From positions 1 through 64,000 of the forward strand of contig JAMPXJ010000016.1 of NCBI GenBank assembly GCA_023701205.1: a stretch of DNA of 64,000 bases, given 5' to 3'. Positions 2,188 to 60,893 of this stretch are shown here, piece by piece (positions within the stretch are counted from its first letter, which is position 1; each line of letters opens with the position of its first letter). Origin of the DNA: Oligoflexia bacterium. GTDB taxonomy: Bacteria > Bdellovibrionota > UBA1018. The notes beneath the pieces are model-generated. The model saw only the letters and a list, made by a program, of their open reading frames with translations. It was not told where the DNA came from and did not search any database. The position numbers were made by a program, and so were the translations under genes.

Positions 2188-4161
2188 ATGATTCGCTCAC
2201 TTCCTCACCTCCTTTCTCAGCTCCTTACCGGCCGCACGAGCCGATTTGTCGTCCTGTCTGCCTTGAGTCTCGCCCCAAGCGTCCAGGCCGGAGCGGGGTT
2301 TTCGCTGGTCCCGGCGCCCGACTCGTTCGAGGCCATCGAAGGTCCTGCCGTGCGGGACTTTCTCGCGCACGCCGAAAGACAGCTCCCGGACAAGCTCAAA
2401 ACCCGAATCGGAAGGCCTGTACGCGTGCGGTTCAAGAAGCTCTCCAGCACCGTGGATTTCGCGGCAGCCTGTTCGGAATCCTCCACGCCCGAGCAGCTGG
2501 GCTATGTGATGAGGTCCTTCCTGCTTGTCGGCGGGTACCAGGAGATCGTCTTGAATCAGGCGTTCCTTCCCGAGATCCGAAAGGGGGAACGCGGATCAAG
2601 CCCCGTCCCGTGCCGCCAAGGCACCGCCTATCGCATGGCTCTGGCAACCCTGCTGCACGAGCTCAGCCACATCTATGACTTCGAAGATCCGAAAACGCCG
2701 GCCGATCTCGCGGAAATCGAACGCTGCGCGCTCGGCGAGTCCCGCTCGCGCGAATGCGAACGCCTCAACCGCATCCAGGGCTTCGTCTCGGATCATCGCC
2801 CGTTCAGCGCCCTGGCCGACAGCTACCTGAATTCGCGGAGAAGCCCCGATTCCTACGAAAAGGAAAACCTCCAGGAGAATTTCGCCGTGAACATGGAGTT
2901 CTTCCTCCTCGATCCCCGCTTCGCCTGCAGGAGGCCCGCGCTGCATCGCTTCCTGGCGGAACATTTCGGCCTCGATCCCTTTCCGGAGCGCGATTGCCGG
3001 ACGAATACGACGATCCACCTCTACTCCAGCGGAAAATCCGTGAGCCTGGACACCGATCGGGTCTATCAGCTCCATTTTCTGCTCGCCGCTCGCGGCCAGG
3101 CCGCCATGAGCCGCTGGGGCCACGCGATGTTCCGGATCATCGTCTGCGCGCCCGAGCGCGCCGTTCCGGGCCCGGAATGCCTCAAGGATGTCGAACATCA
3201 CCTCGTCGTCGGATTTCGCGCCGCCAACTCCGAAGCGCGCTACGACCCTCTCAAAGGCATCATCGGCGGGTACTCCTCGCGGATCCTGGCCTACTCCCTG
3301 GCCGAGATCCGGCGTGAGTACGCGGATGAGGAGCTTCGAGACCTGCTCAGCCTGCCGCTGACGCTCACGCGCGAGCAAATGGCGTCTTTCCTCGAGCATG
3401 CGCTTGAGCTCTATTGGGGTTTCAACGATCCCTATCGCTTCTTCACCCGGAACTGCGCCACGAACGCGCTTCTGCTGCTGCAATCCGCGCTCCACGGCGA
3501 GCATCCGCTTCAGCAGGAAGAGGTCACCACTCCTTTGGGGCTTTACGAAACGCTGCTGCGCGTGGGACCGGTCGACGCCTCCGTTTTGCAAACCCTGGAA
3601 CGCGCACGCATCGAGGGCTACCTGTTCGAATCCAAGAAAGAGAAGCTCAAGAGCGCTTTCAGGTTCCTCAAAGCCTTTCCAGAATTCGCCTGGGCTTCGC
3701 TCAAAAGCATTCTCGAGGAGAGCGCCCCGTCGGATCGCCTCCTGAGCTTCGAGCGCCTGCGTGCGAGCCATCCTGAAAGCACCAAGAAACTCGCCGCGGC
3801 GTTTCTCATCTTGGAGTCGAGAATCGTCTATCTGGAACAGGAAGCCGCGAGAGCGAAGATCGCGACGGTCATGGAGAAGCCACGGTACGAGGCGGAAGTC
3901 CGGCGGTTCCAGCTCGAATCGGCGCGACTCGATCCGGCGTACCTGACTCTGAATCCAGCCTCGCGCGCGAGCTATGGCGTGCCCTTGGACTCCGAGACGC
4001 TCTCCGCGTCCGAAATCGCGGAAAAATGGAAATCCGCACAGACCCTGTCGATCGCCTTGATGGATCGCATTGTTGAGGATCACCCCGAATTCCTGCTCAG
4101 GCAGGAGAAAAGCAGGGCCAACATCGAAGCCTACCGGCGCGCCCTCCTGCGATCGCCATGA
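2188..4161 (+). CDS. Exported DUF4105 (Lnb-type) protein with HExxH motif
   Basis: This 657-residue exported protein has a signal peptide ending near SVQAGA. The N-terminal half contains a zinc-metallopeptidase-type HELSH motif at residues 157-161 (LLHELSHIYDFE). The middle carries the DUF4105 signature: SRWGHAMFR, a YSLAEIRREYADEELRD stretch, and FFTRNCATNALLLL with the family's Cys. The domain occurs as the periplasmic N-terminal domain of Lnb-type membrane proteins, and its chemistry in bacteria is poorly defined. The C-terminal 200 residues are helical and charged with no recognised domain. It is convergent with tag, overlapping it by 31 bases. A periplasmic hydrolase role is an inference. 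Confidence 0.85.
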   Translation: MIRSLPHLLSQLLTGRTSRFVVLSALSLAPSVQAGAGFSLVPAPDSFEAIEGPAVRDFLAHAERQLPDKLKTRIGRPVRVRFKKLSSTVDFAAACSESSTPEQLGYVMRSFLLVGGYQEIVLNQAFLPEIRKGERGSSPVPCRQGTAYRMALATLLHELSHIYDFEDPKTPADLAEIERCALGESRSRECERLNRIQGFVSDHRPFSALADSYLNSRRSPDSYEKENLQENFAVNMEFFLLDPRFACRRPALHRFLAEHFGLDPFPERDCRTNTTIHLYSSGKSVSLDTDRVYQLHFLLAARGQAAMSRWGHAMFRIIVCAPERAVPGPECLKDVEHHLVVGFRAANSEARYDPLKGIIGGYSSRILAYSLAEIRREYADEELRDLLSLPLTLTREQMASFLEHALELYWGFNDPYRFFTRNCATNALLLLQSALHGEHPLQQEEVTTPLGLYETLLRVGPVDASVLQTLERARIEGYLFESKKEKLKSAFRFLKAFPEFAWASLKSILEESAPSDRLLSFERLRASHPESTKKLAAAFLILESRIVYLEQEAARAKIATVMEKPRYEAEVRRFQLESARLDPAYLTLNPASRASYGVPLDSETLSASEIAEKWKSAQTLSIALMDRIVEDHPEFLLRQEKSRANIEAYRRALLRSP

Positions 4162-4793: not shown

Positions 4794-5636
4794 TCACTCC
4801 CGCCCCAGCCCGAAAAGATCCAGGTTATAGCAGTAGACCGCCTCGTCTTTCGACTCTTTGACCAGGCCGCGCACGTTCTCCAGCGCGCGCACCATCGCCT
4901 CGCGCACTTTCGGGAGATCATCGAGCGCGACGCTGATGACGCCCGAGTAGTGCAGCTCGTGCGGGGTCTCGCGCTCGAGCGAGCGCACCGCCTGGATGCG
5001 CCAGTTCGTATGGTGCTTGGAGATCATGGGCGAGTCGTGCTCGAGATGGATGCGGGTGTCGCCCGGGAGGAATTCCCCGCTCTCGCTCCTTACGAGACCA
5101 ACTGAGGTCAAGAACTCCAGGACGCGAATCGTCTGCTGCAGGCCGAGATCAAGATATCTGGCGATCGCGCCCGGCGTCCTGAGCCTGGGATTGAGCACGG
5201 CCATATGGATCGCGCAGTAGGCCCAGTGACTGTAGTACTCGCTCTGCTTTTCGGGTGTCAGGGACTTCTTGTCGGTGAAGCGGTTCTTGAGCTGGAGCCG
5301 CTGATTGAGGATCTGCGCGATGCGCTTCTCGAAGTGCTTCCTGAGGGAGTGGGTGCCAGCGCGCGCGAATTCCACAAGCAGGATGAAATGATTCGCCTCC
5401 TCCTCGCCGTGCTCGAGCAGGCCGTTGAGCGCTTCGGCCTGCTCGAGGCTGAAGTTGGAATGACCGGTGAGCACTTGCGAGATATAGGCAAGATGGCAAC
5501 GCGCGCGCTCGGCCATCCGGGACTTCTCGCCCCGGCCGCCCTGAGGTCGCGCTTCGATCCAGGCTCGCAGATAAGCTTTATAGTCCCGAAACTCAAAGAC
5601 TACGGGCCTGGGCTCGCTCTTAACGCTTGGGCTCAT
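4794..5636 (-). CDS. TIGR02147-family transcriptional regulator
   Basis: The 280-residue protein opens with the TIGR02147 pattern (FEFRDYKAYLRAWIE). An HTH-like segment follows (MAERARCHLAYISQVLTGHSN), then a winged C-terminal half containing TPGAIARYLDLGLQQTIRVL and a VRSESGEF turn. The family is typical of Fibrobacter and Bdellovibrio-type genomes. Its members are predicted DNA-binding proteins, mostly without a known ligand. The gene is divergent from the exported protein at 5854, and a perfect inverted repeat at 5640-5654 lies four bases upstream of its start codon. It probably controls itself and its divergent neighbour. Confidence 0.88.
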   Translation of the reverse strand: MSPSVKSEPRPVVFEFRDYKAYLRAWIEARPQGGRGEKSRMAERARCHLAYISQVLTGHSNFSLEQAEALNGLLEHGEEEANHFILLVEFARAGTHSLRKHFEKRIAQILNQRLQLKNRFTDKKSLTPEKQSEYYSHWAYCAIHMAVLNPRLRTPGAIARYLDLGLQQTIRVLEFLTSVGLVRSESGEFLPGDTRIHLEHDSPMISKHHTNWRIQAVRSLERETPHELHYSGVISVALDDLPKVREAMVRALENVRGLVKESKDEAVYCYNLDLFGLGRE

Positions 5637-5639
5637 AAG

Positions 5640-5654
5640 TAAAGTATGACTTTA
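5640..5654. promoter_or_regulatory. Candidate operator TAAAGT-N3-ACTTTA
   Basis: A perfect 6-bp inverted repeat with a 3-base spacer lies in the divergent intergenic region, directly before the TIGR02147 gene. Binding by that regulator is an inference from position and symmetry. Confidence 0.4.
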
Positions 5655-5802
5655 GTTTAGGCTTGTTTCTAAATTTATTTCTCCTTACAAAACGACACGG
5701 CGCAGCATATACCTGATTTCGCCGGAACGAAGTCCTGCGGGAACTCAAGCCGCAACCGTGAAAAGGGCTTCATCCCGGCGGAACCCCTAAGAGTTTCGAT
5801 TG

Positions 5803-5819
5803 TTGACTCGCTTAGTCAA
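5803..5819. promoter_or_regulatory. Inverted repeat TTGACT-N5-AGTCAA upstream of the exported gene
   Basis: A perfect 6-bp palindrome with a 5-base spacer lies 34 bases before the ATG at 5854. Its left arm also looks like a -35 element, so a protein bound here would block transcription. No clear -10 stands at 17 bases. Confidence 0.35.
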
Positions 5820-5853
5820 TCAAGATAAACCCTGCGGCTTGAATGAGGAAATT

Positions 5854-6879
5854 ATGAAAACCCGACCCCTGGCTTTCACCCTGACTGCTGCCGGCCTGCT
5901 TCTGATCCAAGCCGGCCATTCGCTTCCCGCCCATGCCCGAGGCGGCGAAACCGGAGGCGGCGGAAACGTCCTCGGGGACGAGCTTCTCGATTTGCAGGCG
6001 GAAGAAGACGTCAAAGGCCTGCGCGCTTACAAGCTTGTCGTCAAGCCCATGATCGAGCGCTTCAAAAAACAGGTGCCCGCCTTCGGGCGCGCGTTCGAAT
6101 CCCAGCTCGATTCCCTGACCTGGTACCTCCTTCCGGCCGACGTTCCGCGCGTGGACGCCGGGATCAACGGCGTGCCCATGATCTCGGGCCAGGCCGCGGC
6201 TCAAGTCGGCAACGAGGTTTGGATCGACTCAAGAAAGGTGCGCAATGAGGGCCTCCTGGGACGGCTCATCGTTCATGAGGTTGCTCTCTCCATGGCGGCC
6301 GGCGAAGAGGGACCCGTTCGTCACGCAAAGACCCGCGCGTTCGTGCGATACGTCTTCAGCCCCAAGAATCAAGCCAGGAGCGAAAAGGAGCTCGCCCTGG
6401 CGATCGCTGAGCTGACTGATCGTGGCTATCTCACGCGAGCGGAAGAGGAGCAGGCGGAAGCCGCGGCGAAAGAGCGGGAGCGTGTTCGCCGGATCGAGGC
6501 GGAAAAAACCGCGGCCTGGCTTGCCGAGAAGTTTGAACGCGCCAATGGAAAAATCCGTGAGGCGTGCTCGTTGATTCGAAGTGCCGAGGCGCTCGCAAAG
6601 AGCGGAAGTGATGCTCAGCTCAATGAGGCTCTGATTCAGGCCGCAGATGTGATTTGGCCCGCGCTCTCCGATTCGTTTATGGCGCTTCAAGACCTGAAAT
6701 CAACAAGAGACAATGACCTCGTGACCGGACCTTGGATTCTTGATGGACGCGAAGTTTCGGGGGAGGATCATGAGATGGCTCGCTATCGTCCCTCAAGAAT
6801 GATGGACGTGTGGGACCCATCGAAGCGGGACCGGGAGAACGTTCTTGCCGGCAATCTTCGGTCCTTCACCTGCGAGTGA
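5854..6879 (+). CDS. Exported protein of the Ala-Arg-Gly-Gly family, degenerate HExxH
   Basis: The product has a signal peptide ending at about SLPAHA, followed by RGGETGGGGN. The ATG at 5854 (341 residues) is preferred over an upstream ATG at 5800 because GAGGAA precedes it and the signal peptide starts there. A central segment (IVHEVALSMAAGEEG, His141-Glu142) lines up with the HEALH motif of the larger paralogue at 7861 but lacks the second His, so zinc catalysis is unlikely. Residues about 195-240 form a charged, Glu/Arg-rich helix that may be a coiled coil. It is divergent from a TIGR02147 regulator and is followed by a good terminator. Function unknown. Confidence 0.75.
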   Translation: MKTRPLAFTLTAAGLLLIQAGHSLPAHARGGETGGGGNVLGDELLDLQAEEDVKGLRAYKLVVKPMIERFKKQVPAFGRAFESQLDSLTWYLLPADVPRVDAGINGVPMISGQAAAQVGNEVWIDSRKVRNEGLLGRLIVHEVALSMAAGEEGPVRHAKTRAFVRYVFSPKNQARSEKELALAIAELTDRGYLTRAEEEQAEAAAKERERVRRIEAEKTAAWLAEKFERANGKIREACSLIRSAEALAKSGSDAQLNEALIQAADVIWPALSDSFMALQDLKSTRDNDLVTGPWILDGREVSGEDHEMARYRPSRMMDVWDPSKRDRENVLAGNLRSFTCE

Positions 6880-6911
6880 CTAAAACCCAGGTTTTTTTCT
6901 GGAAATATCTG

Positions 6912-6942
6912 AACCCCCGCAGGAGTAGCCCTGTGGGGGTTT
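6912..6942 (+). terminator. Rho-independent terminator
   Basis: The stem AACCCCCGCAG / CTGTGGGGGTTT with an 8-base loop lies 33 bases after the stop of the exported gene. A T-containing stretch follows (TTTAATCATTTTG). The long G-C stem makes this the clearest terminator of the left half. Confidence 0.75.
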
Positions 6943-7041
6943 AATCATTTTGCTTGCTCTTTTATGCGTGATTACCGCCAGACCTCAGAATGATTACCAC
7001 CACCATTGCGCACTACAGCATCCCGCGCTATACGCTGCCCC

Positions 7042-7857
7042 ATGGTTTTGGAACATGCGGACTACAGAGCCTTTTTGAAAGGCGTCGTCGCTCAGCGCAA
7101 GCGAAACAACCCAGCCTACTCCCTGCGCGCCTTCGCGCGACAGATCGGGATCGGACAGTCGGCCCTTTCGCAGATTCTCGCCGGGCGCAAGAACCTCTCC
7201 TTGGAAAGAGCAACCCAGATCGCCACGAAGCTCGGCTTGGCCGCCGTTGAGACGGAGTACTTTCTCGTCCTGATCCAGCTGGAGACGGCGAAGAACGTGG
7301 ATCTGAAAAAATCACTCCTCGCGCGCGCGCGCTCGCTCAATCCGCGGCACGAGACGCGCGATCTCTCGGTCGATCTCTTCTCCGTGATCGCCGACTGGTA
7401 CCACTTCGCGATCAAGAACATGACCGGGCTCGAAGGCATCGAGTTCGCTCCGGCGAAGATCGCCAAGCGCCTGGGCATCTCCAAGATCGAGGCCGAGGCG
7501 GCGATCGAGCGCCTCCTTCGCCTGGAGCTGATCGAAGCCGATCCCGCGCGCGCCGGAAAGTTCCGTCGCGTGGAGAGCTTCACCCTGACCCGCTCGGCCA
7601 CTCCGAACGAGGCGCTCCGCCGATTTCACCGGCAGATGCTTCAAAAAGCGTCAGAAGCCCTGGAGACCCAGACTCCCCGGGAAAGATTCACCGGCTCCGA
7701 GACCTTCGCCATCTCGGAGGAACACCTGCCCAAGGCTTTCGCGCTCGCGGATGAGTTTTTGCGGAAAATAGCGGCACTGAGCGACGAGTCCCAGCACCCC
7801 ACGCAGGTTTATCACGCGGGGGTCCAGTTCTTTAATCTGACGAAAGAGAGAGGATGA
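7042..7857 (+). CDS. TIGR02147-family transcriptional regulator (second paralogue)
   Basis: From the ATG at 7042 (271 residues) the protein begins with the family pattern VLEHADYRAFLKGVVAQ. The frame reaches back to 7006, but that extension lacks family similarity. An HTH follows (RAFARQIGIGQSALSQILAG), then the C-terminal winged region (FAPAKIAKRLGISKIEAEAA). It ends three bases before the exported protein at 7861, so the two are almost certainly one operon. This repeats the pairing of a TIGR02147 regulator with an Ala-Arg-Gly-Gly exported protein seen at 4794-6879. Confidence 0.85.
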   Translation: MVLEHADYRAFLKGVVAQRKRNNPAYSLRAFARQIGIGQSALSQILAGRKNLSLERATQIATKLGLAAVETEYFLVLIQLETAKNVDLKKSLLARARSLNPRHETRDLSVDLFSVIADWYHFAIKNMTGLEGIEFAPAKIAKRLGISKIEAEAAIERLLRLELIEADPARAGKFRRVESFTLTRSATPNEALRRFHRQMLQKASEALETQTPRERFTGSETFAISEEHLPKAFALADEFLRKIAALSDESQHPTQVYHAGVQFFNLTKERG

Positions 7858-7860
7858 AAT

Positions 7861-9354
7861 ATGTTTGCGCGTTTGTCGACCGTCGTTTTCCTGAGCTTGC
7901 TTGTGGCCAACCTGGCTCACGCCCGAGGGGGTTCTGATGGCACCCGCGGCGGCGGCGAGGTCCTCTCGGAACGCGACGGCACCCTTCGCCTTCGCGATCT
8001 CGTGGATCCTTCCGTCTGCGAGATGAGGACGGGCGCTGAGATGAGAGCGGCCAATCCCGCGATCGACCAGATCCTCGAGAAGATCTCGAGGCTCGACTGG
8101 TACTTCGCCGCGGGACTGAAATACGAGATCACGCAGCTGAATATCTGCCTCACCGAAGGGCTGATCCGGCTGCCCGAGCGGGATCGGGATTCGGTGATCA
8201 TTTACGTTCCCCAAGGTCGGCGCTATCAGGCGGCGATCCGCTTTCTTGATTCCCGCGATGTCTATCTGAGCCGGAGCCTCTATGAAGGTCTGAGCTACGA
8301 GCAGGACCGGGCCTTTCTGATCATTCATGAGGCCCTGCACAGCTTCATTCCGCGCCACTCCCGCAACCGCAAAGAAGGCATCATGGCCGCGGTCAAGACT
8401 CTGTCGCGCGTCGTGGAGGGCCAGATCCGAGCCGCCCGCAAGCTGCGCGCGGACCTGAACGCCGCTTCGATCGAGTATCCCTGGACTGAAGCCTCGCTGG
8501 CCCCCTCCCGTGCCGCGGTCGAGTTCGCGCTCGCCGCTCCCGCGGAGCAGGCCCGCATGCTCCTGGCTTCGCGCGAGCTGGATCAGCTCTTTGGTGCGAA
8601 CACCGCGCTGAAAGCGGAACTTCTGCATCCGCTGCATCGCGGGCTTCTGTTCATTTCTCCGGCGACGCTCGTTGCGCGGCTTCTCGCCGAGGGAGAAAAT
8701 CCCACCGAACTTCTGGAGGTCCTCATCAACCCGCCCGCGGGAAACGCGCCCGTCACCGCCTTTGATCCGCTGCTGGTCGCGCTCGCCTTCGCGGCGGACG
8801 AAAGCCCGGAACTTCTGCAAAGAATCATGGAGAGCTCGGCCGCCAGGCAGGGGCCAAACCTGTTTGAGCGGATGAAGAAGAAGTCGCTCAAAGCGGGCAA
8901 GGTGAGAATCGAAGCGAACCCGGAATACGCGCTGCTTGGAATCCGCGAGCAGGAGTCCTCCGAACGGATCAACGCCCTGTCCGTACGCCCCTACTCGCTT
9001 GGGGAAGAAAACAAGACCCCCGCGGAGGTGCGCGGCTTCCTGGCGTTCGTGGTCGAGCTCGCGAAAGACCCCGCGCGCGAAGAGCTCCTGGCGAGAACCG
9101 TCACGCGGAACGACAACTTCTACGCGGCGTTCGGCATCCGTGAGCTGCAAGCGCAGCTGGCCGCGCTGAACGCTCCGATCGCCCGGGAGAGAACCTACCT
9201 CGCCGAAGCGCTTCCGGCGCTCGTGCAGGGCTTCCGGATCGCTCTCGTCACGCAGGTGACGCGCGAAGCGGGCCCCGAGGCCGCGGAAAAACTGAATCAA
9301 GCCATCGACTGGTCCCGGCTGGGACTCTCAACTGAACTTCAGGACAAGGAGTAA
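7861..9354 (+). CDS. Exported HExxH protein of the Ala-Arg-Gly-Gly family
   Basis: This 497-residue protein has a signal peptide (MFARLSTVVF to ANLAHA) followed by RGGSDGTRGGGE. Residues 156-160 are HEALH in IIHEALHSFIPRHSR, a zinc-peptidase-type HExxH followed by basic residues. I cannot assign the third metal ligand. The C-terminal 300 residues are predicted helical, with repeated Ala/Leu/Glu runs and no recognised domain. It lies between a TIGR02147 regulator (3-base gap) and another exported protein (4-base gap), so the three form an operon. A regulated periplasmic peptidase or peptidase-derived binding protein is the best inference. Confidence 0.7.
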   Translation: MFARLSTVVFLSLLVANLAHARGGSDGTRGGGEVLSERDGTLRLRDLVDPSVCEMRTGAEMRAANPAIDQILEKISRLDWYFAAGLKYEITQLNICLTEGLIRLPERDRDSVIIYVPQGRRYQAAIRFLDSRDVYLSRSLYEGLSYEQDRAFLIIHEALHSFIPRHSRNRKEGIMAAVKTLSRVVEGQIRAARKLRADLNAASIEYPWTEASLAPSRAAVEFALAAPAEQARMLLASRELDQLFGANTALKAELLHPLHRGLLFISPATLVARLLAEGENPTELLEVLINPPAGNAPVTAFDPLLVALAFAADESPELLQRIMESSAARQGPNLFERMKKKSLKAGKVRIEANPEYALLGIREQESSERINALSVRPYSLGEENKTPAEVRGFLAFVVELAKDPAREELLARTVTRNDNFYAAFGIRELQAQLAALNAPIARERTYLAEALPALVQGFRIALVTQVTREAGPEAAEKLNQAIDWSRLGLSTELQDKE

Positions 9355-9358
9355 GAAA

Positions 9359-10669
9359 ATGAAATCCCTGAAACTGTTATTGACCCTGGGACTTACCACG
9401 CTCATTCCGCTCGGCGCTTATGCGGCCCCGACCACGCCGGGTGAGGAAGGCGAGGCCCTGGCCGGACAAGTCGGCGTGACGCGCGATGCGCTCGAGCAGA
9501 TCCTCACGCAGATGCGAAACGGCAGCGATCCGCGCAACGGCGCGGAGTTCTCCAATCCTGACTTCCTGGTCAAGGCCGAGGCCTTCAATCGCCAGGCCGA
9601 AAGCGCGATGGTCGAATTCGAGGCAGAGGTGAAACCGATCCTGAAAGAGGCGAACTTCTACGCGAGCCGCCTGGACAAGATCCTGAAGTCGAAGAACTAT
9701 ACCCCTGAGCAGAAGCAGGCTTTGTACAGTTCTCAGCATGAGTCCGCGAAAATCGCCTTTGAAGGACTGACCGCGCGTTACCGGGAGGCGCTTCGGAGGC
9801 TTTACCTCGCCGGATTCTCTGATACGCGGCTCGAGCTGGTGGCCGATAGCTGCACAGAGGAACAAATCCTCACGGGTGAATACTCCGGACGATACTCCGC
9901 CTTTGTTCAACTTCGGGTAAGATCCGAAGTCGCTGTCCTCAACGGACGCACCCTCAAGCCACGCGTGTACTACTACTCCTATAGTGATCCCGTCGGAAAA
10001 TTTTTTGACGTTTGCCAAAAGCAACTGATCAGTGGCAGTGCCGTCATGCGCGATGGGTTGAACATCGCAGAACTGGATAAGCTGACGAGTACACTTTTTC
10101 CCGAAAGTGGTCTCGTCAGTCTGCTCCGGGATGAGCTCCGAAAGCTCTTCACCGACGAGCTGATCGTGAAGGGCTGCTACACCTCTTCGTGCGTCTTCCT
10201 CTACTCCGCCCATCGAAAGAGCTTTGTGGAGCTGGTCGAAGCCACCCTGGATAAGGGCATCCCGATTCATTCCGCGCCGGGGAGGTATGCTGATCTCCAG
10301 CTGAGTGGAGGCGCGCTGAATACTCATCAGCCGCGCTATCTCGTGTCGGTTCGAACTGAGGAGGCCTCGCACCTTCCTTTCGAAATCTCAGAAGAAGAGT
10401 ATCGCGAGAAGGAAGCCGAGCGGCAGCGTGCCGAAGCCGAGCGTCGCCAGGCCCTTTTGCAAGAGCTCGATTCGCTCCTGACCGCGGGAAGCCGAAGCTG
10501 GTTCTCCACCTGGCAGTGTTCCGATCGCGTGGCTGAGATCAAAGCGTCACTCTGTCAGGCCGCGGGCGCCTGCCTGAGCGACTCAGAACGGGACGCGCTG
10601 CTGCGCTCGATCGACGGCGCGAAGGTCAAGAGCAAGCCGGAGCGGGTGGCCTGCGTTCAGACGCCGTGA
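9359..10669 (+). CDS. Exported protein of unknown function
   Basis: The 436-residue product has a signal peptide (MKSLKLLLTL to GAYAAP), a helical N-terminal 160 residues, and a central part with several cysteines (DSCTEEQ, DVCQKQ, GCYTSSC). A charged helix near 345-375 (EEEYREKEAERQRAEAERRQ) and two further Cys pairs follow near the C-terminus. The even number of cysteines in an exported protein suggests disulfide bonds. It starts four bases after the HExxH protein and shares its operon. I recognise no family. Confidence 0.65.
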   Translation: MKSLKLLLTLGLTTLIPLGAYAAPTTPGEEGEALAGQVGVTRDALEQILTQMRNGSDPRNGAEFSNPDFLVKAEAFNRQAESAMVEFEAEVKPILKEANFYASRLDKILKSKNYTPEQKQALYSSQHESAKIAFEGLTARYREALRRLYLAGFSDTRLELVADSCTEEQILTGEYSGRYSAFVQLRVRSEVAVLNGRTLKPRVYYYSYSDPVGKFFDVCQKQLISGSAVMRDGLNIAELDKLTSTLFPESGLVSLLRDELRKLFTDELIVKGCYTSSCVFLYSAHRKSFVELVEATLDKGIPIHSAPGRYADLQLSGGALNTHQPRYLVSVRTEEASHLPFEISEEEYREKEAERQRAEAERRQALLQELDSLLTAGSRSWFSTWQCSDRVAEIKASLCQAAGACLSDSERDALLRSIDGAKVKSKPERVACVQTP

Positions 10670-23807: not shown

Positions 23808-25733
23808 TCACGCGCCCGGGCCGCTCACCTGCCCGACCTGGCCCACCACGATCGTGATGTCGTCTTCGACTTCGGCGCGACCGGTGAATTCCCGGACCCC
23901 CGCCATCAAGGCATCGCAGATTTTTCGCACGTCGCCAGAATCGCGCGAGACCAGCTCCAGCAGACGCGAACGGAATTCAACCTTGCTCAAGGGCCGGCCC
24001 GTGGGATCCGTGCATTCGACCAGCCCGTCGGTGTACCAAAGCACGAGATCCCCCGGCTCAAGCCAGGTCTCCGAGAGCGTCGCACTATAGCCTTCCCCCA
24101 TTCCCGGGCCCCCGGCCGGGACCAATGTCCCGAACGCCTTGTCCGCGCCGCCGGCGGCGCAAGCCCGCGCGCGAAGCAAGAGCGGCGGTCGATGAGCCGC
24201 ATTGAACGACACCGCCCTCCCCGACCCGGTATCGATCACCGAGGCGACCAGGGTCATGCCGGCCTGACCGGCACCGGCCGCGCGGATGGCGACCTCCAGC
24301 TCCCGGGCAAGCCCGCGAAGCCAGGCCTCGGGATCCGCAATCCCATCCCTGACGCGCTCGACGCAGAGGCTGAAGGCCGCATGCGCGGCGGCGGTCACGA
24401 GCGCCGCCGAAACCCCGTGTCCGGTGACATCGCCCATCGCGACGATCAGATGATCGCCGAGCTTCGCGTAGTGCCACCAGTCCCCGCCGCACTCGCTCGC
24501 CGGCAGCAGGCTCCCGGCCAACCGGAAACGCGGTGTCGCCAGATCCTCCCCGGGGAAGAAGCGCCGCTGCACGATCCGTGCGGTCTCGAGCTCCTTTTCC
24601 ATTCGCGCTTTTTGAGCGGTTTGCTGGATGAGCTCACCGATCTTCCCTGCCATGGTATTGAACGATGTTCCGAGCAGGCCGAGCTCGTCCCGCCCTCGGC
24701 CGCGGATGCTCACGCGCGCGGCGAAGTCGCCGGTGGCGATCCGGTCCGCCGCCGCCGAGAGCGCCCGAAGCGGATCGCTGATCGCGCGCGAAAGCAGGAA
24801 GGAGATCAGCAACGCGAGCGAGAGGAGCGCGCCCGCGAGGAAGAGCGATCTCAGATAGAGCTCCCGCATTGCGCGCTCGGCATGGTCGAAGGGAACCTGG
24901 GCGATCGCCGCGAGGCCGCCGAAGCCGACCTTCTGGAAAGCCCCGATCCGGCGCAGCCCGCTCCGGTCGGTGAACTCGCGTTGCATGGCCGGAGCGCGCC
25001 CCGCAAGCAGCGGGGCCAGAAGCGGCAGATCACTCAGGTCTTCGCCCGGCGGGAAGCTCAGCGGATCCGCCGAGCCCAGCACCTGGCCCTTGCCATCGAC
25101 GATCAGCCCGGCATAGCCCGTGGAGTCCTCCAGGAGAGCGGAGAACGCATCCTGCCGCATTTCCACCACGAGGACTTCGGTGAACTCGCCCTTGGCTTTC
25201 CAGAGAAACGGGATCGCCATGCGAATGACCAGGCCGACGGGCTGGAGGCTCGCGAGGCGGAAGGAAGCCTCGCCCTTGCGCGCGACCTCGAAATCGACGG
25301 GAAATTCGCGATCGAATGCTTCGAGCGACCGCGAAGAAAGCGCTCCTTGCGCCACAAGATCCCGCCGTATCGCCCGCCAGCGCGGACGGAAGCGTGGAGG
25401 CTGATCCGAGGGCGACTCGTTGGCGTAAAGCGCGAGGCTCGCCAGCTGCGGATCCCGCTTCAAGCTCTCCTCGATGAACTGCAGCCGATCCGCCGGATAC
25501 CGGAACTCCTGGAGAGAGGCCATGCCAAGGGTGAACGCGCGGCTCGCCACGTGCCGAAGCTCGCTCCGCGCCCGGCTGGAAAGCATCGCGGCGGCATCAA
25601 GCGCACCCTTGGAGATGAGATGACTGAGGTCGGAGGTGAACAGGTCCGTCGCGGTAAGGATGATCCCGCCCCCCGTGAGCAGAAGCATCGTGACGAGCAG
25701 GAGATTGATCTTGCGGCCGATACTCAGCACCAT
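23808..25733 (-). CDS. HAMP-SpoIIE serine phosphatase with periplasmic sensor (module A)
   Basis: The 641-residue protein has a transmembrane helix near 10-30, a periplasmic region of about 270 residues resembling a double-Cache sensor, and a second helix near 300-325. A HAMP domain (ISDPLRALSAAADRIATGDF) and a coiled-coil linker (QKARMEKELETARIVQRR) lead to a PP2C/SpoIIE domain. Metal motifs are SECGGDWWHY, GDVTGHGVSAALV, LWYTDGLVE and EDDITIVVG. It should dephosphorylate a Ser/Thr-phosphorylated partner, most simply the STAS protein next door, in response to a periplasmic signal. Paralogues are at 31211, 44857 and 60890. The second Asp of the usual GGDxYD is replaced by His. Confidence 0.93.
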   Translation of the reverse strand: MVLSIGRKINLLLVTMLLLTGGGIILTATDLFTSDLSHLISKGALDAAAMLSSRARSELRHVASRAFTLGMASLQEFRYPADRLQFIEESLKRDPQLASLALYANESPSDQPPRFRPRWRAIRRDLVAQGALSSRSLEAFDREFPVDFEVARKGEASFRLASLQPVGLVIRMAIPFLWKAKGEFTEVLVVEMRQDAFSALLEDSTGYAGLIVDGKGQVLGSADPLSFPPGEDLSDLPLLAPLLAGRAPAMQREFTDRSGLRRIGAFQKVGFGGLAAIAQVPFDHAERAMRELYLRSLFLAGALLSLALLISFLLSRAISDPLRALSAAADRIATGDFAARVSIRGRGRDELGLLGTSFNTMAGKIGELIQQTAQKARMEKELETARIVQRRFFPGEDLATPRFRLAGSLLPASECGGDWWHYAKLGDHLIVAMGDVTGHGVSAALVTAAAHAAFSLCVERVRDGIADPEAWLRGLARELEVAIRAAGAGQAGMTLVASVIDTGSGRAVSFNAAHRPPLLLRARACAAGGADKAFGTLVPAGGPGMGEGYSATLSETWLEPGDLVLWYTDGLVECTDPTGRPLSKVEFRSRLLELVSRDSGDVRKICDALMAGVREFTGRAEVEDDITIVVGQVGQVSGPGA

Positions 25734-30488: not shown

Positions 30489-31232
30489 ATGCGTAAGCTT
30501 CATCCGCTTTCCATCGCGATCGCGCTGGTTCTGATTTGTCTGGGAGCCTTGAGCGGCATCCTGCTCATCGCCTGGGCTGCGGCCCCCTGGCTGCCGTCAT
30601 CGGACTTCCGCGGGCTCATCCTGACCGCGCTGGCCGGGGTGACGGCGCTTGCGGGGGTTCTCGCCGTGTATCGCCTGTTTCTGGCCATCTTCCCGCTTGA
30701 AGCCGGTGAGGTCGGCGATAACCTCAGCGCGTCATTCCGCTATGAGGTCCATCAGATGTTCTACCTGATGCTCTTCACGCAGCTGGTCCGGAGCAACCTG
30801 CTGCCGGTGCCCCTGCTCCGCGTTCTGCAGGTCGCGCTCGGGGCCAGGATGGGAGAAAACAGCTACTTCGGCGGAGTGGTCTACGACCCGAGCTTCGTCG
30901 AAGTAGGCAGCGACACGCTCACCGGTGACGGGTCGTTGCTCACTCCGCATATGATCGAGGGAAAGCGCCTCGCCTACTACCCCATCAAAATCGGCAGCAA
31001 CGTTACTATCGGAGCCCGCGCGATCATCCTGGCAGGCGTGACCATCGGCAATAACTCCATCGTCGGCACCGGCTCCGTCGTCACCAAAGGGACCGTCATT
31101 GGCGACAACGAGATCTGGGCGGGCACTCCGGCGAAGTTCATCAAAAAGAACCTCGCCGCAGCCGCGGCCGCCAAAACCGGGCCCGAAAGACCCAAATCGC
31201 CCCGTCGAAATCAGGAAGTCGAGATGCTCTGA
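30489..31232 (+). CDS. Membrane-anchored hexapeptide acyltransferase, paralogue 2
   Basis: The ATG at 30489 follows GGAGGGG and gives 247 residues; an in-frame extension to 30390 would run into the RNA leader. Two N-terminal helices (LSIAIALVLICLGALSGILL and a second near 45-65) and a third hydrophobic stretch (FYLMLFTQLVRSNLLP) precede the hexapeptide domain. Its marks are GARMGENSYFGGVVYDPSF, VTIGARAIILAGVTIGNNSI and EIWAGTPAKFIKK. It matches the proteins at 20223 and 37240 over its whole length. It probably transfers an acyl group to a glycan or lipid at the inner membrane. Confidence 0.87.
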   Translation: MRKLHPLSIAIALVLICLGALSGILLIAWAAAPWLPSSDFRGLILTALAGVTALAGVLAVYRLFLAIFPLEAGEVGDNLSASFRYEVHQMFYLMLFTQLVRSNLLPVPLLRVLQVALGARMGENSYFGGVVYDPSFVEVGSDTLTGDGSLLTPHMIEGKRLAYYPIKIGSNVTIGARAIILAGVTIGNNSIVGTGSVVTKGTVIGDNEIWAGTPAKFIKKNLAAAAAAKTGPERPKSPRRNQEVEML

Positions 31233-33169
31233 GAATCGGTCCGAGCCATGAGACCCACCACCACCGTGACGTCATCCGGCAAGCCCTGGGACCCCGTCTG
31301 GGAGAGCCGTCCCAGGAACTCCAGAAGTCCGCTGGTGATCGCTTCGGGACAGGCCTGATAACTGGCTTGCAGCGACTCCAGCGCCGTCATCAGCTTCACC
31401 TTGCTCACGGTGTGACCTGATTGATTCTTGAGCTCGACCAGCCCATCGGTATACCAGAGAATCGCATCTCCCGGCCGGAGCTCGAATGTCTCGGCAGGCA
31501 GGCGAAGTTCAGGACCCTCTCCCAATGGGCTGCCCGTGCTTTGCACGAGGGTTTCCACAGGTCTCCTCGAGCTCCCCTCAGCGGCGGCGCCTCCCCGCAA
31601 GACATAGGGCCATCGATGCGAGGCATTCATGGAAACGATCCGGCCGCTCGCCGGATCGATCACCGAAGCGATGAGCGTCATGGAGCAGGTTCCGTTCGCG
31701 GCCGCCAGGACGGCGTGATTCATACCCGCGAGCAGCGTTTCGAGCCACTGCTCCGAGGCAACATCGGGAGCCCCTTCCTGAATCCTCCTGATCCCAAGCG
31801 AAAAGGCGGCATGCGCGGCGGCGGTCACCAGGGCTGCTGAAACGCCGTGACCCGTCACATCCCCCATGGCCATGATGATCCGGCCATGAACGAGAGCGTG
31901 CTGCCACCAGTCTCCCCCGCACTCGAAGGCCGACAGGCACTTCCCCGCGAGCGCCAAGCGGCCGACGCGCAGCTCTCGGGTGGGGAAGAAATGCGATTGC
32001 ACCGCCTCGGCGGTCTCCAGCTCCTTTTCCATCCGGGCCTTCTCGGCGGTCTCGACCAGGAGCTCCCCGATCCGTCCCGCCATCTGGTTGAAGACACTCG
32101 AAAGAACTGTGACCTCGTCGCCCCGACCCGGCGCCACGCTCCGCTGGGGGACTCGCGCGCTCAGATCCCCGGTCGAAACCCGGGCTGCCGCCGCCGATAG
32201 CTCCTGGATGGGACGCGTGATCGTTCCGGCCAGCCTCAGCGACAGCAGCAGCGCGGAGGAGAGCGCGATGAGCCCGAGCAGTCCGGCCCTGAGGTACAAC
32301 GCGCGCCGGGCGCGCTCGATCGCTCCGAAAGGCGCCTGAGTCAGCACCGCAAGCCCGGCAAAGCCGATCGGGTGCAGCGCTCCCAGCTGTCGGCTCCCGT
32401 CGAGCGCGATGAAGTCCGACTGCAACGGCAGACCAGAGGACCGCTCGGGTCGCGAAAGAATCGGAAGCGCCGCGAGACTTCGTCCGATCTCGCAGACTCG
32501 CGGATCGCTAGACGCCAGCACCAGTCCCGCGCGCGTGACCAGGCACCCGGCGAATTCAGTCGTTTCCTCAAAGAGCGAGTTGAGCTTGCGAGGAAGGAAC
32601 TCCAGCACTAGGAGCTCGCTGAAAGCGCCTCCGGTCCTTTGGATGAACGGCACTCCCATCCGAAGCGCCGGCGCGCCGTCACGAAGCGACGCCACGGCGA
32701 ACCGGACCTCTCCGCGCGATACCGCCTGAAGATCGAGCGGAAATTCGCGCTGCAGCCGCTCAAGCTCGGTTTGATCCAGGCCAGGGCTACCGCGAGCCTT
32801 CTCTTTCGCCGCAGTCCTCGCCACCCGCCAGTCCGCGACAGGAGAAGCGTCCACCATGCGAAACAGAGTCACGGCCAGCAGATCGGGGTCCCGGGCGAGG
32901 AGCCTCTCGAGCAACGCCAGGCGATCTTCGGGATGGCGGAAATCCTCGAGCGAGACCATTCCCAGAGTACCGGCGCGCTCAGCCAGATTCCCCAGCTCCG
33001 CCCGAACGCGTCCCGACAGCAGCATGGCGGTATCCAGCGCGCCCTTGCGGAGAAGCCGTCCGAGATCGCTCGTAAAAACGTCCGTCGCGGTCCAGACCAC
33101 TCCCAACACGCTAACCAGCAGCGTCAATGCGATCAGGCTATTGAGCTTGCGGCCGATGGTCAGCCTCAT
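31211..33169 (-). CDS. HAMP-SpoIIE serine phosphatase with periplasmic sensor (module B)
   Basis: This 652-residue paralogue of the 23808 protein has the same plan: helix near 10-30, periplasmic sensor, second helix, HAMP (TRPIQELSAAAARVSTGDLS), coiled coil with EKARMEKELETAEAVQ, and the PP2C/SpoIIE domain. The metal motifs are FECGGDWWQH, GDVTGHGVSAALV, LWYTDGLVE and DDVTVVVGL. The periplasmic part differs more than the cytoplasmic part, as expected if each copy reads a different signal. Its 3' end overlaps the convergent acyltransferase gene by 22 bases. FecR B is divergent, 73 bases away. Confidence 0.93.
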   Translation of the reverse strand: MRLTIGRKLNSLIALTLLVSVLGVVWTATDVFTSDLGRLLRKGALDTAMLLSGRVRAELGNLAERAGTLGMVSLEDFRHPEDRLALLERLLARDPDLLAVTLFRMVDASPVADWRVARTAAKEKARGSPGLDQTELERLQREFPLDLQAVSRGEVRFAVASLRDGAPALRMGVPFIQRTGGAFSELLVLEFLPRKLNSLFEETTEFAGCLVTRAGLVLASSDPRVCEIGRSLAALPILSRPERSSGLPLQSDFIALDGSRQLGALHPIGFAGLAVLTQAPFGAIERARRALYLRAGLLGLIALSSALLLSLRLAGTITRPIQELSAAAARVSTGDLSARVPQRSVAPGRGDEVTVLSSVFNQMAGRIGELLVETAEKARMEKELETAEAVQSHFFPTRELRVGRLALAGKCLSAFECGGDWWQHALVHGRIIMAMGDVTGHGVSAALVTAAAHAAFSLGIRRIQEGAPDVASEQWLETLLAGMNHAVLAAANGTCSMTLIASVIDPASGRIVSMNASHRWPYVLRGGAAAEGSSRRPVETLVQSTGSPLGEGPELRLPAETFELRPGDAILWYTDGLVELKNQSGHTVSKVKLMTALESLQASYQACPEAITSGLLEFLGRLSQTGSQGLPDDVTVVVGLMARTDSQSISTS

Positions 33170-44856: not shown

Positions 44857-46749
44857 ATGCGTTTCACTTTGGGAAGGAAGCTCGACGCGCTTCTGGTGAG
44901 CATGCTGCTTCTGAGCATTCTCGGCATCGGCGCGACCGCGACCGAGCTCTTCATCACGGATCATACGCAGCTCCTGAGAAAGGGCGCCCTGGACACCGCC
45001 GCGCTCCTCTCGGCTCGCGTCCGCGCCGAAATGGCGCATCTCGGAGATCGCCTGGCGATCCTGGGGAGCGTCTCCTTCGGGGACTTCCGGTATCCCGAAG
45101 ATCGCCTGCTCCTCATCGAGGAGAATCTCGCGCGCGATCCGCACATCGTCGCTCTCAGCGTCTATCGCGGCAAAACCGACTTCGCGCCCGCCTGGCGCAT
45201 CGCAGCCCCCGGGGCGCCGGCCAAGACCGAGCTGCTCGAGCTGGACCGAAACTTCCCGCTCGACCTCCAAAAGCTCTCCCACGGAGAGACTGACTTCGCG
45301 GTCGTGACCCTCGCGGACGGTTCGCGGCTCATCCGCATCGGGCTCCCCTTTGTCAGGGAACGCACGGGTCTCTTCTCCCAGCTTCTGCTCGCGGAGCTGC
45401 GACCCGCGAAGCTCGAGGCGCTGTTTTCGGAGTCGACGGAATATACGGGCACCCTCGTCGACCGAAACGGCCGGATCCTCGCGTCGGGCGATCCCCTGCG
45501 CTTCGCGCCCGGCACGGAGCTGGGCGCCTCCCCGATCCTGGTCCAAGCGAGAACGCAAGGCGACCGCTCCTTTCAGCTCGATTTCACCGATTCCCGGGGC
45601 CGAGTCCAGATCGGCGCTTTTCACCCGGTGGGCTTCGCGGGTCTCGCGGTGGTGACGCAGACCCCGCGCGAACGGATCGACCGCGCGACCCAAGGGCTCA
45701 AGCGACGCGTGGCCCTGCTCGGGCTTTTCGTGCTCTCTTGCGCTCTTCTTCTTTCGCTCGGGATTTCCCGCTCGATCACCCGCCCGATCATCGCGCTCGC
45801 GGCCGCGGCCGAACGCGTCGGGGCTGGCGACTTCTCGGTCCAGGTTGCGACCTCCGGCACCCGCCTGCGCGACGAGATCTGGGCCCTGGGAACCGCCTTC
45901 AACTCCATGGCCTCGAAGATCAGCGGGCTATTGCGCGAGAATGTCGCCAAAGCGCGCATGGAAAAGGAGCTCGAGACCGCGAGAGTCGTGCAGAGCCGCT
46001 TCTTCCCGAAGGAAGGGCTCCGGGAGCTTCACTTCGGGCTCGAAGGGAAACTCATCGCCGCGAGCGAATGCTGTGGCGACTGGTGGAACTTCGTGCGCAT
46101 CGAGGAGCGGCTTCTGATCGCCGTGGGCGATGTCACCGGTCACGGCGTTTCGGCCGCGCTCGTGACCTCGGCCGTGCACGGGGCTTTCGCCCGCACGGTC
46201 CGCGAGCTTCAGTCAGCGCCAATCCGCGGCCCGCAGGTCGAGGAGCGACTCATCCGTCACCTGGCCCGGGAGCTGGATCTCGCCGTTCGCGAATCCGCCC
46301 AATGCGAGGCCTCGATGCCCATCACGATCTCCTGTCTTTCGCCGGATCGGCGGCTGCTTTATACCTTGAGCGCGGCTCATCCCCTCCCACTGCTCATCCG
46401 GGATAACCAATATCTGGCGGCTCCCTGCGCCACCCGAGTCGCCCTCGGCGAGCCCGGCGCCGAGCCGGTGGAATTCCAGGCCTTTGAGCTGCGCCCAGGA
46501 GACATCATCCTGTGGTACACCGATGGCCTGACCGAATGCCCCGGCCAGGACGGGCGTACCCTCAGGAAAAAAGCGCTGCTTCAGCAGCTTTCCGTGCTCG
46601 GGCGCCAGGCCTCCGCCGGCCCTGACGGACTCCGCGATGGCCTGGCTCAGCTCGTCCGCGCGCATCTCGGGCCCGAAACACCCCATCCCGAAGACGACAT
46701 CACCTTCGTGGTCGGCGTCGTGCCGGTCACGAGCTCCGGAATAGCTTGA
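44857..46749 (+). CDS. HAMP-SpoIIE serine phosphatase with periplasmic sensor (module C)
   Basis: This 630-residue paralogue has an N-terminal helix (LLVSMLLLSILGIGATATEL), a periplasmic sensor, a second helix (LLGLFVLSCALLLSLGI), HAMP (ITRPIIALAAAAERVGAGDF), a coiled coil, and the PP2C/SpoIIE domain. Metal motifs are SECCGDWWNF, GDVTGHGVSAALV, LWYTDGLTE and EDDITFVVGV. The motif before GDWW has Cys-Cys in place of Cys-Gly. It is divergent from the ELWRSDGT lipoprotein operon and overlaps the convergent STAS gene by 23 bases, so phosphatase and probable substrate meet at their 3' ends, as in module A. Confidence 0.93.
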   Translation: MRFTLGRKLDALLVSMLLLSILGIGATATELFITDHTQLLRKGALDTAALLSARVRAEMAHLGDRLAILGSVSFGDFRYPEDRLLLIEENLARDPHIVALSVYRGKTDFAPAWRIAAPGAPAKTELLELDRNFPLDLQKLSHGETDFAVVTLADGSRLIRIGLPFVRERTGLFSQLLLAELRPAKLEALFSESTEYTGTLVDRNGRILASGDPLRFAPGTELGASPILVQARTQGDRSFQLDFTDSRGRVQIGAFHPVGFAGLAVVTQTPRERIDRATQGLKRRVALLGLFVLSCALLLSLGISRSITRPIIALAAAAERVGAGDFSVQVATSGTRLRDEIWALGTAFNSMASKISGLLRENVAKARMEKELETARVVQSRFFPKEGLRELHFGLEGKLIAASECCGDWWNFVRIEERLLIAVGDVTGHGVSAALVTSAVHGAFARTVRELQSAPIRGPQVEERLIRHLARELDLAVRESAQCEASMPITISCLSPDRRLLYTLSAAHPLPLLIRDNQYLAAPCATRVALGEPGAEPVEFQAFELRPGDIILWYTDGLTECPGQDGRTLRKKALLQQLSVLGRQASAGPDGLRDGLAQLVRAHLGPETPHPEDDITFVVGVVPVTSSGIA

Positions 46750-59844: not shown

Positions 59845-60893
59845 AGTCCCCAGCCGACGCTGCAGGTGAGCGACTCCGAAGAGACGGAATGGGCGGCGGA
59901 CGCCCTGAAGCGCAACGAGGCGAAATCCAGCGAAACCGACAGCGCCTTTCCGGCTCCCCGGACGCTTTCCCACTCCAGGCCGGCCGCGAGCTCGCGCTCC
60001 TGAAGCTCGATCAGGCGGGGCTCCTTGGAAACAGGAACGTATTTCATATGGAATCCAACGCTCGAGCCGGCACCCAGGTTCTTGCGCAGCGAAGGATAGA
60101 GCTGCGGATACAACAGATGGCTGTAGCCGAAAGCATTGCCGGTCACGAACATATGGGCGAAGTACAGGCCGCCTGAAAGAGAGAGGCTCCAGCTCGCGCC
60201 GCCAAGCGCCTCGGGAAGCGGCATCGCATAGCCGCCCCGGAGATTGATCCCGAGGAAGCGCACCGCATGGTCGGCGGGTCCTCCGCTCAGCGGCTGACTG
60301 AGATAGAGATTCCCGCCCGCGTTCCAGCGGGAATCCCCGAATCGATGGGTGGCCGCGACCTTCACGGTCGCCGAGAGAAGGCGGAAATCAGCCAAGCCGT
60401 CTTCCCGATAGCGCAGCCAGGTCGCTCCCAACGCGACCCGAGGCCGGGCGAGCGCCCGTCCGAGCTCCTTCTCGCGAAAGCGCTCCCAGGCGTCGAAGTC
60501 GACGATGAATGCCTGGCTCTCGGCGGAATGGGCGCCGATCGCGAGAAACTCGAGGGATTGCTCGCGCGCCCGGAGCGGGATCTCGAAGCGGAATTCCCCC
60601 TCGGATTCTCCCGCGATGAACTGGGCTTCGCTCAGGGCGAGGTTCCAGCCCGGACGCTTGAACTTCCCGCGAATGACTGCCACGGGACGGGGGATCCCCT
60701 CGGCCCACTCCGTTCGTACCTCGAGCCGGTCCGGCCGATCGAAGCTCAGGCCGTTGATGGCGGCGCCCTCCCCGTCCAGGTCCCGCGGGACCTCGCGCAA
60801 CGAGGCCAGGTAGGGGCTCTGCTCCGCCCGGACCGGTGCGGCCGCGCACGCCAGCATCAGAAAAAACATCGTCAAGGAGGCCTGCGCTCTCAT
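59841..60893 (-). CDS. Outer-membrane beta-barrel protein (module D)
   Basis: This 350-residue exported protein (signal peptide MRAQASLTMFFLMLACAAAP) ends in the same 200-residue barrel as the other modules: RFLGINLRGGYAMPLPE, SGGLYFAHMFVTGNAFGYSHL, YPQLYPSLRKNL and MKYVPVSKEPRL. It differs at the N-terminus: the fibronectin-III-like domains are replaced by about 140 residues of beta-strand-rich sequence. Its ATG overlaps the stop of the SpoIIE gene (ATGA), so here the barrel is coupled to the phosphatase rather than to FecR. Confidence 0.78.
   Translation of the reverse strand: MRAQASLTMFFLMLACAAAPVRAEQSPYLASLREVPRDLDGEGAAINGLSFDRPDRLEVRTEWAEGIPRPVAVIRGKFKRPGWNLALSEAQFIAGESEGEFRFEIPLRAREQSLEFLAIGAHSAESQAFIVDFDAWERFREKELGRALARPRVALGATWLRYREDGLADFRLLSATVKVAATHRFGDSRWNAGGNLYLSQPLSGGPADHAVRFLGINLRGGYAMPLPEALGGASWSLSLSGGLYFAHMFVTGNAFGYSHLLYPQLYPSLRKNLGAGSSVGFHMKYVPVSKEPRLIELQERELAAGLEWESVRGAGKALSVSLDFASLRFRASAAHSVSSESLTCSVGWGL

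What the first reader, a model, noticed from the sequence alone, without database searches (positions are those of the whole stretch)
4794..9354. Twice-repeated pair of TIGR02147 regulator and Ala-Arg-Gly-Gly exported protein
Regulator 4794 is divergent from 5854, and regulator 7042 is directly upstream of 7861. The exported proteins share the ARGG start and a His-Glu motif: HEALH is intact in the second and degenerate (HEVAL) in the first. This suggests a duplicated regulated periplasmic pathway with one active and one inactive peptidase-like member. Inverted repeats at 5640-5654 and 5803-5819 may be operators.
Basis: partly seen in the sequence, partly recalled or inferred. Interest (0 to 1): 0.5.

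Follow-up and report, generated by a model that had tools for sequence, protein, structure and literature searches.

The report
Regulator genes paired with exported proteins

Summary
The genome has 33 TIGR02147 matches. Under one strict rule, 19 of 32 called regulators adjoin an exported protein with a Gly-rich mature start (GN[GP] or GGG), against 3 of 630 background genes. In 80 loci fetched by regulator sequence alone, 51 regulators pass (downstream side) against 7 of 571 other genes in the same loci. Homologues of 5854 and 7861 lie beside a TIGR02147-type gene in 26 of 29 loci.

The two regulators fall on opposite sides of a 99% branch, each with regulators flanking homologues of its own partner, so this is no local duplication. 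HEVAL is not decay: in 5854's family HE is invariant and the fifth position is Met or Leu in 15 of 18; in 7861's family it is Tyr in 23 of 33. The inverted repeats do not exceed chance. 7861 sits in a conserved three-gene operon with 9359 and resembles gluzincins weakly.

Most likely: co-inherited cassettes in which each regulator controls its own exported zincin-like partner. What the GN motif does is open.

The parts
4794..5636 (-). TIGR02147/DUF4423 regulator of the divergent type (clade A)
   Evidence: NCBIfam TIGR02147 71.7 bits, Pfam DUF4423 68.4 bits; tree position
5637..5853 (.). shared intergenic region between the divergent genes; inverted repeats at 5640-5654 and 5803-5819, not above chance
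5854..6879 (+). exported partner of 4794: signal-peptide-like start, ARGG, GGGGN motif (5953-5967), HE helix (HEVAL from 6274)
   Evidence: no Pfam or NCBIfam family over its cut-off
6910..6943 (+). terminator-like stem (14 pairs) after 5854, separating the two units
7042..7857 (+). TIGR02147/DUF4423 regulator of the operon type (clade B): Xre-type HTH, MarR/ArsR-like winged helix, C-terminal part
   Evidence: 149.9 bits; AlphaFold2 model pLDDT 93.5; fold matches
7861..9354 (+). exported partner of 7042: ARGG, TRGGGE motif (GGG at 7948-7956), HEALH from 8326; residues 50-207 (8008-8481) resemble gluzincins
9359..10669 (+). third gene of the operon, signal-peptide-like start, no Gly motif; homologues beside 7861 homologues in other genomes

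Best explanation
The two pairs are two members of a multigene set of cassettes spread through the Bdellovibrionota. Each cassette is a one-component TIGR02147 regulator plus a Sec-exported partner whose mature end starts with a Gly/Asn motif and which usually carries a zincin-like domain with a conserved HE helix. SHOWN: the pairing, its conservation with a fixed orientation for each partner family, the usual translational overlap in the operon type, the position of the motif just after the signal peptide, and the loss of the second His as the family norm. INFERRED: each regulator binds its own promoter region through its Xre-type HTH and adjusts how much of its own exported partner is made, in the operon type together with itself; 4794 serves 5854 from the shared 217-base region, 7042 serves itself, 7861 and 9359. 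The partners act in the envelope or on prey, some as zinc peptidases (intact HExxH), most as non-classical or non-catalytic binding proteins.
For: 33 TIGR02147 matches in the own genome. Strict adjacency 19 of 32 versus 3 of 630 background genes; 51 of 80 versus 7 of 571 downstream in named loci fetched by regulator alone. Reciprocal: 26 of 29 loci holding a 5854 or 7861 homologue have a TIGR02147-type gene within about 1.5 kb; for 7861 homologues 11 of 11 with a regulator have it upstream on the same strand, for 5854 homologues 13 of 15 divergent (with match strands). Regulator tree splits by partner type. 74 of 80 regulators have a signal-peptide ORF starting -60 to +80 bases from their stop, 40 of the 74 with a 4-base overlap; motif 57 of 65 times within 15 residues of the guessed cleavage site, median 5. 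Regulator model pLDDT 93.5 with HigA-like HTH and MarR/ArsR-like winged helix. Zincin-like domain: best four rows are selecase, then EryP, BepA, LTA4H. A cultivated example on a Bdellovibrio plasmid with the same 4-base overlap and mature start NAKVIGNGG.
Against: No DNA binding, expression or export was measured. 13 of 32 own-genome regulators fail the strict rule, some by eye for start choice or variant motif, some (L011, L029, L033) with no obvious partner. Partner evolution is not strictly parallel: the nearest own regulator of 4794 is L034 (55%), but the nearest own relative of 5854 is L030's partner. The structural match of 7861 is weak (Z 4.8, 94 residues, 4.2 A; whole-model pLDDT 65.9) and no profile match to a solved structure passes E 0.05. 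5854 reaches 7861's family profile only at E 0.0016 without signal peptide, background best 0.064. A conserved third zinc ligand was not found (E172 in 6 of 33).
Confidence: 0.72

Rival explanations
1. Local duplication of one regulator-peptidase pair, one copy active and one inactive.
For: The two pairs are adjacent and the two exported proteins share ARGG and a His-Glu motif.
Against: The two regulators lie on opposite sides of a 99% branch among 111 rows, each with regulators from other genomes beside the matching partner. Gene order differs (divergent versus operon). Degenerate HE is the family norm.
Confidence: 0.04
2. Feedback sensing: the exported partner, or a fragment of its mature N-terminus with the GN motif, is itself the signal read by the adjacent regulator, in the manner of secreted-peptide systems of the RRNPP type (recalled) whose product gene overlaps the regulator gene.
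For: Dedicated pairing, translational overlap (40 of 74), export, and a short conserved mature start; the regulator has a C-terminal part after two DNA-binding-like domains.
Against: The motif is nearly the same for all pairs, so signals would cross-talk; partners are whole proteins of about 90-970 residues; the regulator model shows a MarR/ArsR-like winged helix rather than a clear repeat array. No test of binding.
Confidence: 0.12
3. Toxin-antitoxin-like units: a HigA-like HTH protein guarding against a harmful exported protein.
For: The N-terminal HTH is closest to HigA antitoxins, adjacency and overlap are as in such modules, and one pair sits on a plasmid.
Against: The partner is exported, so a cytoplasmic guard would not meet it; partners do not resemble HigB; 7861 is followed by a conserved third gene; only 1 of 72,556 plasmid records matched a class C regulator.
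Confidence: 0.05
4. The neighbourhood reflects only co-inheritance: regulators and exported proteins travel together without regulation of one by the other.
For: No regulatory experiment exists in what I read.
Against: Two independent layouts (operon and divergent) both place the regulator where it could control the partner, fixed for each family.
Confidence: 0.07

Closest known systems
TIGR02147 family (NCBIfam 'Fsuc_second', paralog type; Pfam DUF4423 for the C-terminal part)
   Same: Both regulators score above the curated cut-offs.
   Different: The family entry as shown by the tool names paralogues only; the pairing with exported GN-motif proteins is not in the entry as returned and no paper in the library holds 'TIGR02147'.
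Bd3700 of Bdellovibrio bacteriovorus ('DUF4423 domain-containing'; PMC12546842, passages only)
   Same: A DUF4423 protein of the same phylum; listed with a value of 2.67 in a table within the section on proteins upregulated during growth within prey.
   Different: The passages say nothing of a partner gene; I could not see its neighbours.
Selecase (minigluzincin, 4qhf) and other gluzincins (LTA4H, BepA, EryP)
   Same: Residues about 50-207 of the 7861 model align with them as the best rows (Z 4.8 to about 3); HExxH present in 7861.
   Different: Weak score, no confirmed third ligand, and most relatives have Tyr for the second His.
Matrixin/Metallopep-type metzincins (Pfam PF00413, PF12044)
   Same: Three other partners in the own genome (L025, L028, L031) have HExxHxxGxxH and sub-threshold matches to these families.
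   Different: All below the Pfam cut-offs; a different zincin subtype from 7861.

Membership tests
TIGR02147 | score above the curated cut-off of 50 bits | tested here: met
   4794: 71.7 bits; 7042: 149.9 bits
TIGR02147 | DUF4423 C-terminal domain | tested here: met
   68.4 and 128.3 bits, cut-off 30
Gluzincin metallopeptidase (7861) | HExxH zinc motif | tested here: met
   HEALH at residues 156-160
Gluzincin metallopeptidase (7861) | conserved downstream Glu as third zinc ligand | tested here: inconclusive
   E172 is Glu in 6 of 33 rows; no other conserved Glu identified
Gluzincin metallopeptidase (7861) | gluzincin fold | tested here: inconclusive
   Selecase and other gluzincins are the top domain rows but Z is 4.8 at most; Foldseek gave nothing at E <= 0.001
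Gluzincin metallopeptidase (5854) | HExxH zinc motif | tested here: not met
   HEVAL; 1 of 18 family members has HExxH
RRNPP-type peptide-sensing regulators | C-terminal TPR-like repeat domain | tested here: inconclusive
   Model matches Xre HTH and MarR/ArsR-like winged helix; PrgX appears only at Foldseek E 0.15
HigA antitoxin | paired with a HigB-like toxin | tested here: not met
   Neighbours are exported proteins without Pfam or NCBIfam match to toxins

The most novel reading that the evidence does not exclude
The [ETV]-x-G-N-[GP] start of the mature proteins is a sorting or processing tag shared by periplasmic proteins and lipoproteins that are otherwise unlike each other, read by a common envelope or secretion machine, and each tagged protein is under its own TIGR02147 regulator: a phylum-wide, individually switched set of secreted effectors of predatory bacteria.
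Probability: 0.22. Interest if true: 0.85.

Novelty: new variant of a known kind. Interest (0 to 1): 0.6.

Why it matters
Bdellovibrionota genomes hold many uncharacterised exported proteins. A rule that links each such protein to its own adjacent regulator, with a recognisable mature N-terminus, would let dozens of candidate envelope or prey-acting proteins per genome be named and tested together, and gives the regulator family named 'Fsuc_second' a concrete class of likely targets. If the N-terminal motif is a tag, it would point to an unknown export or processing step.

Tried and rejected
Inverted repeats as operators: counted against dinucleotide shuffles for 10 intergenic regions; the window's 217 bases are not enriched. 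Two of nine divergent regions (L021, L027) had more repeats than 96.5% of shuffles, but no shared sequence was seen; alignment of the window region with L034 and L030 shows a few shared blocks between window and L034 and no common palindrome. Promoter scan: one weak site, as many as in shuffles.

N-terminal tag as a pure signal: in several partners (L016, L026, L023 in the own genome; L174, L176, L177, L184 among named loci) the motif lies roughly 35-70 residues after the cleavage site, just before the domain, which fits a fold element or a second processing site as well. So I did not adopt the tag as the best explanation.

Profile linking 5854 to 7861: strong with signal peptides included (E 8e-9) but only E 0.0016 without them; I treat the homology of the two as probable, not shown. 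Iterating from 5854 alone found nothing in the named loci.

Foldseek of both models gave no match at E <= 0.001; some gluzincin and HTH families may be missing from those lists. No test outside Bdellovibrionota was possible: the one scan of genome contigs returned only records that look Bdellovibrionota-like by title or kinship, and plasmids gave one hit. Searches for print: 'TIGR02147' 0 papers, InterPro-style names (recalled accessions) 0, 'Bdellovibrio' with 'GNGG' 0, 'DUF4423' 1 paper, regulator/exported-protein wording 0; PMC11656739 passages had no regulator terms.

Statistics: the motif rule was written after seeing the own-genome neighbour table, so the own-genome count is partly post hoc; the 80 named loci were fetched later by regulator sequence alone. 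The wider motif set was broadened. In L037-L092, 43 of 56 loci held a motif partner somewhere within the 1.5 kb flanks, both strands; many of those are lipoprotein-type. Gene calls come from a home-made finder, which missed one of 33 regulators (C10:72116); that one too has a GNGG exported protein beside it (L260). Of 105 GNGG-coding DNA places in the genome only the first 30 were examined: 2 are true signal-peptide proteins, both beside TIGR02147; a third hit (L267) does not look like a real signal peptide.
Full report
What is there. The window holds, in order, a TIGR02147/DUF4423 regulator on the minus strand (4794-5636), an exported protein on the plus strand (5854-6879), a terminator-like stem (6910-6943), a second TIGR02147 regulator (7042-7857), an exported protein starting 3 bases later (7861-9354) and a further protein with a signal-peptide-like start, 4 bases later (9359-10669). 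Neither exported protein, nor 9359, has a Pfam or NCBIfam match over its cut-off.

Is the pairing more than chance? The own genome (4.1 Mb, 51 contigs) has 33 TIGR02147 matches, 30 over the cut-off; 14 well-known control genomes have none. I fetched the surroundings of all 33 and about 800 kb of background. Most regulators are next to an exported protein with a Gly-rich mature start. Under one fixed rule (signal peptide, GN[GP] or GGG within 25 residues of the hydrophobic stretch, start -60 to +80 bases after the regulator stop or divergent at 60-320 bases), 19 of 32 called regulators pass (11 downstream, 8 divergent) and 3 of 630 background genes do (0 downstream, 3 divergent; Fisher p 2e-25). 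With a tighter rule on the mature end, 19 of 37 signal-peptide genes flanking regulators carry the motif against 5 of 290 in the background. The rule was written after seeing the own-genome table, so the cleaner test is the next one.

Independent loci. A scan of genome contigs with a regulator alignment (window 7042 first) gave 80 loci, nearly all from records titled Bdellovibrionales, Bacteriovoracaceae, Oligoflexales or similar, chosen by regulator sequence only. In these, 51 of 80 regulators pass the downstream rule against 7 of 571 other genes in the same loci. In a closer look 74 of 80 regulators have a signal-peptide ORF at -60 to +80 bases, 40 of these 74 overlapping the regulator stop by exactly 4 bases; a motif of the wider kind is present in 65 of 74, and in 57 of the 65 it begins within 15 residues of the guessed cleavage site (median 5). 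Typical starts are A|GHEVGNGG, A|TREVGNGG, A|GDEVNNGG. In 56 further loci from phylum searches, 43 hold a motif protein in the flanks; many of these are lipoproteins with C-G-T-x-x-G-N-P, so the GN core sits at about the same distance from the processed end in lipoproteins and in periplasmic proteins.

Reciprocal test. Searching 144 phylum genomes with 7861 and with 5854 found homologues in 11 and 14 genomes, the own included. Of the 29 loci other than the two window genes themselves (12 for 7861; 17 for 5854, one of them the own paralogue L030/L160), 26 contain a TIGR02147-type gene within about 1.5 kb; the misses are L144, L152 and L163. For 7861 homologues the regulator is upstream on the same strand in 11 of 11; for 5854 homologues it is divergent in 13 of 15 (L154 and L158 differ) (with the match strands). 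TIGR02147 itself occurs in 168 of 191 phylum genomes and 22 of 30 nearest relatives.

Not a local duplication. In a tree of 111 regulators, 4794 is inside a clade of 32 rows (SH-aLRT 99) that contains all 14 regulators found beside 5854 homologues and the 9 divergent regulators of the own genome; 7042 lies among the other 79 rows with the 11 regulators found beside 7861 homologues. The two pairs are old, separate lineages that happen to be neighbours. Pairs are not strictly parallel: 4794 is nearest to the L034 regulator (55%), while 5854 is nearest to the partner of L030.

The exported proteins. Iterated profiles join 7861 with the large 'GNGGxxVVC...LLDxYE...HExxY' family of partners (L019, L018, L024, L010, L014, L032, L035 in the own genome). 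In the alignment of 33 rows, the two Gly are invariant, Asp46, His156 and Glu157 nearly so, and the fifth position of the HExxH motif is Tyr in 23, His in 6, Trp in 2 and Gly and Arg in 1 each. In 5854's own family of 18, HE is invariant and the fifth position is Met in 12, Leu in 3, and Glu, Val and His in 1 each. So HEVAL in 5854 is typical, not a decayed HEALH. 5854 matches the 7861 family profile at E 0.0016 when signal peptides are left out (best background 0.064), which makes common origin probable but not shown. The AlphaFold2 model of 7861 is confident mainly over residues 50-100 and 125-200 (overall pLDDT 65.9); its best structural rows are selecase chains (Z 4.8, rmsd 4.2, 94 residues), then EryP, BepA and LTA4H, all gluzincins, but such scores are within the range of common arrangements. 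A third zinc ligand is not evident. Other partners in the genome have HExxHxxGxxH and sub-threshold matrixin-like matches. The third gene 9359 has homologues directly beside 7861 homologues in L164, L134, L136 and L170, so the operon is regulator-7861-9359.

The regulator. The model of 7042 (pLDDT 93.5) has an N-terminal five-helix HTH closest to HigA antitoxins and a winged helix closest to MarR/ArsR regulators, followed by a C-terminal part. Row 4 of the structural list, 4g6q (Z 8.1, residues 105-266), covers the winged helix and the C-terminal part. This is a one-component regulator by its parts; what it senses is unknown.

Operators.

How it most likely works. Step 1 (shown by neighbourhood, inferred as regulation): each regulator controls its own promoter and, in the operon type, itself and its partner in near-equal translation through the 4-base overlap. 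Step 2 (inferred from signal peptides): the partner is exported by Sec and processed, leaving a Gly/Asn start. Step 3 (inferred, weak): the partner's zincin-like domain acts in the envelope or on prey, catalytically where HExxH and a third ligand exist, otherwise as a binding protein. One published proteome lists a DUF4423 protein, Bd3700, with 2.67 in the table of proteins upregulated during growth within prey (PMC12546842, passages read), which fits stage-specific use. A cultivated example with the same layout, Bdellovibrio sp. HAGR004 plasmid genes HAGR004_40930 and 40940, overlaps by 4 bases and its partner starts NAKVIGNGG and holds an HE motif.

Novelty. No paper in the searched library holds 'TIGR02147', and 'DUF4423' occurs in one, without the pairing in the passages I saw. 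That is a statement about these searches only. I rate the set as a new variant of a known kind (one-component regulator beside its target), with the shared N-terminal motif as the part that could be more.

Noticed in passing
window 23247-62788: Four HAMP plus SpoIIE-phosphatase proteins (23808-25733, 31211-33169, 44857-46749, 60890-62788); by eye the first three sit in a repeated cassette with a ~180 aa protein, a ~290 aa membrane-anchored protein and a ~410 aa exported protein.
   Followed up: partly
window 2188-4161: Exported protein with DUF7844 and Lnb_N matches and a HELSH motif, just outside the finding; not beside a TIGR02147 gene on its own side.
   Followed up: no
L136, L137, L144, L145: Matches to 7861 in these genomes run through one in-frame stop; they may be broken genes or matches reading past a gene end.
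   Followed up: no
L010, L012, L013 (own genome) and L037-L092: A third class of TIGR02147 regulators is followed by small lipoproteins starting CGxxxGNP, one with a sub-threshold DUF4382 match; in L012 and L013 the gene before the regulator also looks like a lipoprotein.
   Followed up: partly
L166 and L211: Records titled 'Lysobacteraceae bacterium WA131c' carry typical Bdellovibrionota regulator-partner pairs; the contig length equals that of G020:C1, which is in the window's own order, so the title looks wrong.
   Followed up: no
L274 2989-4541 (AP029177.1): A regulator-partner pair on a Bdellovibrio plasmid, near an IS66 element, suggesting that pairs can move as units.
   Followed up: partly
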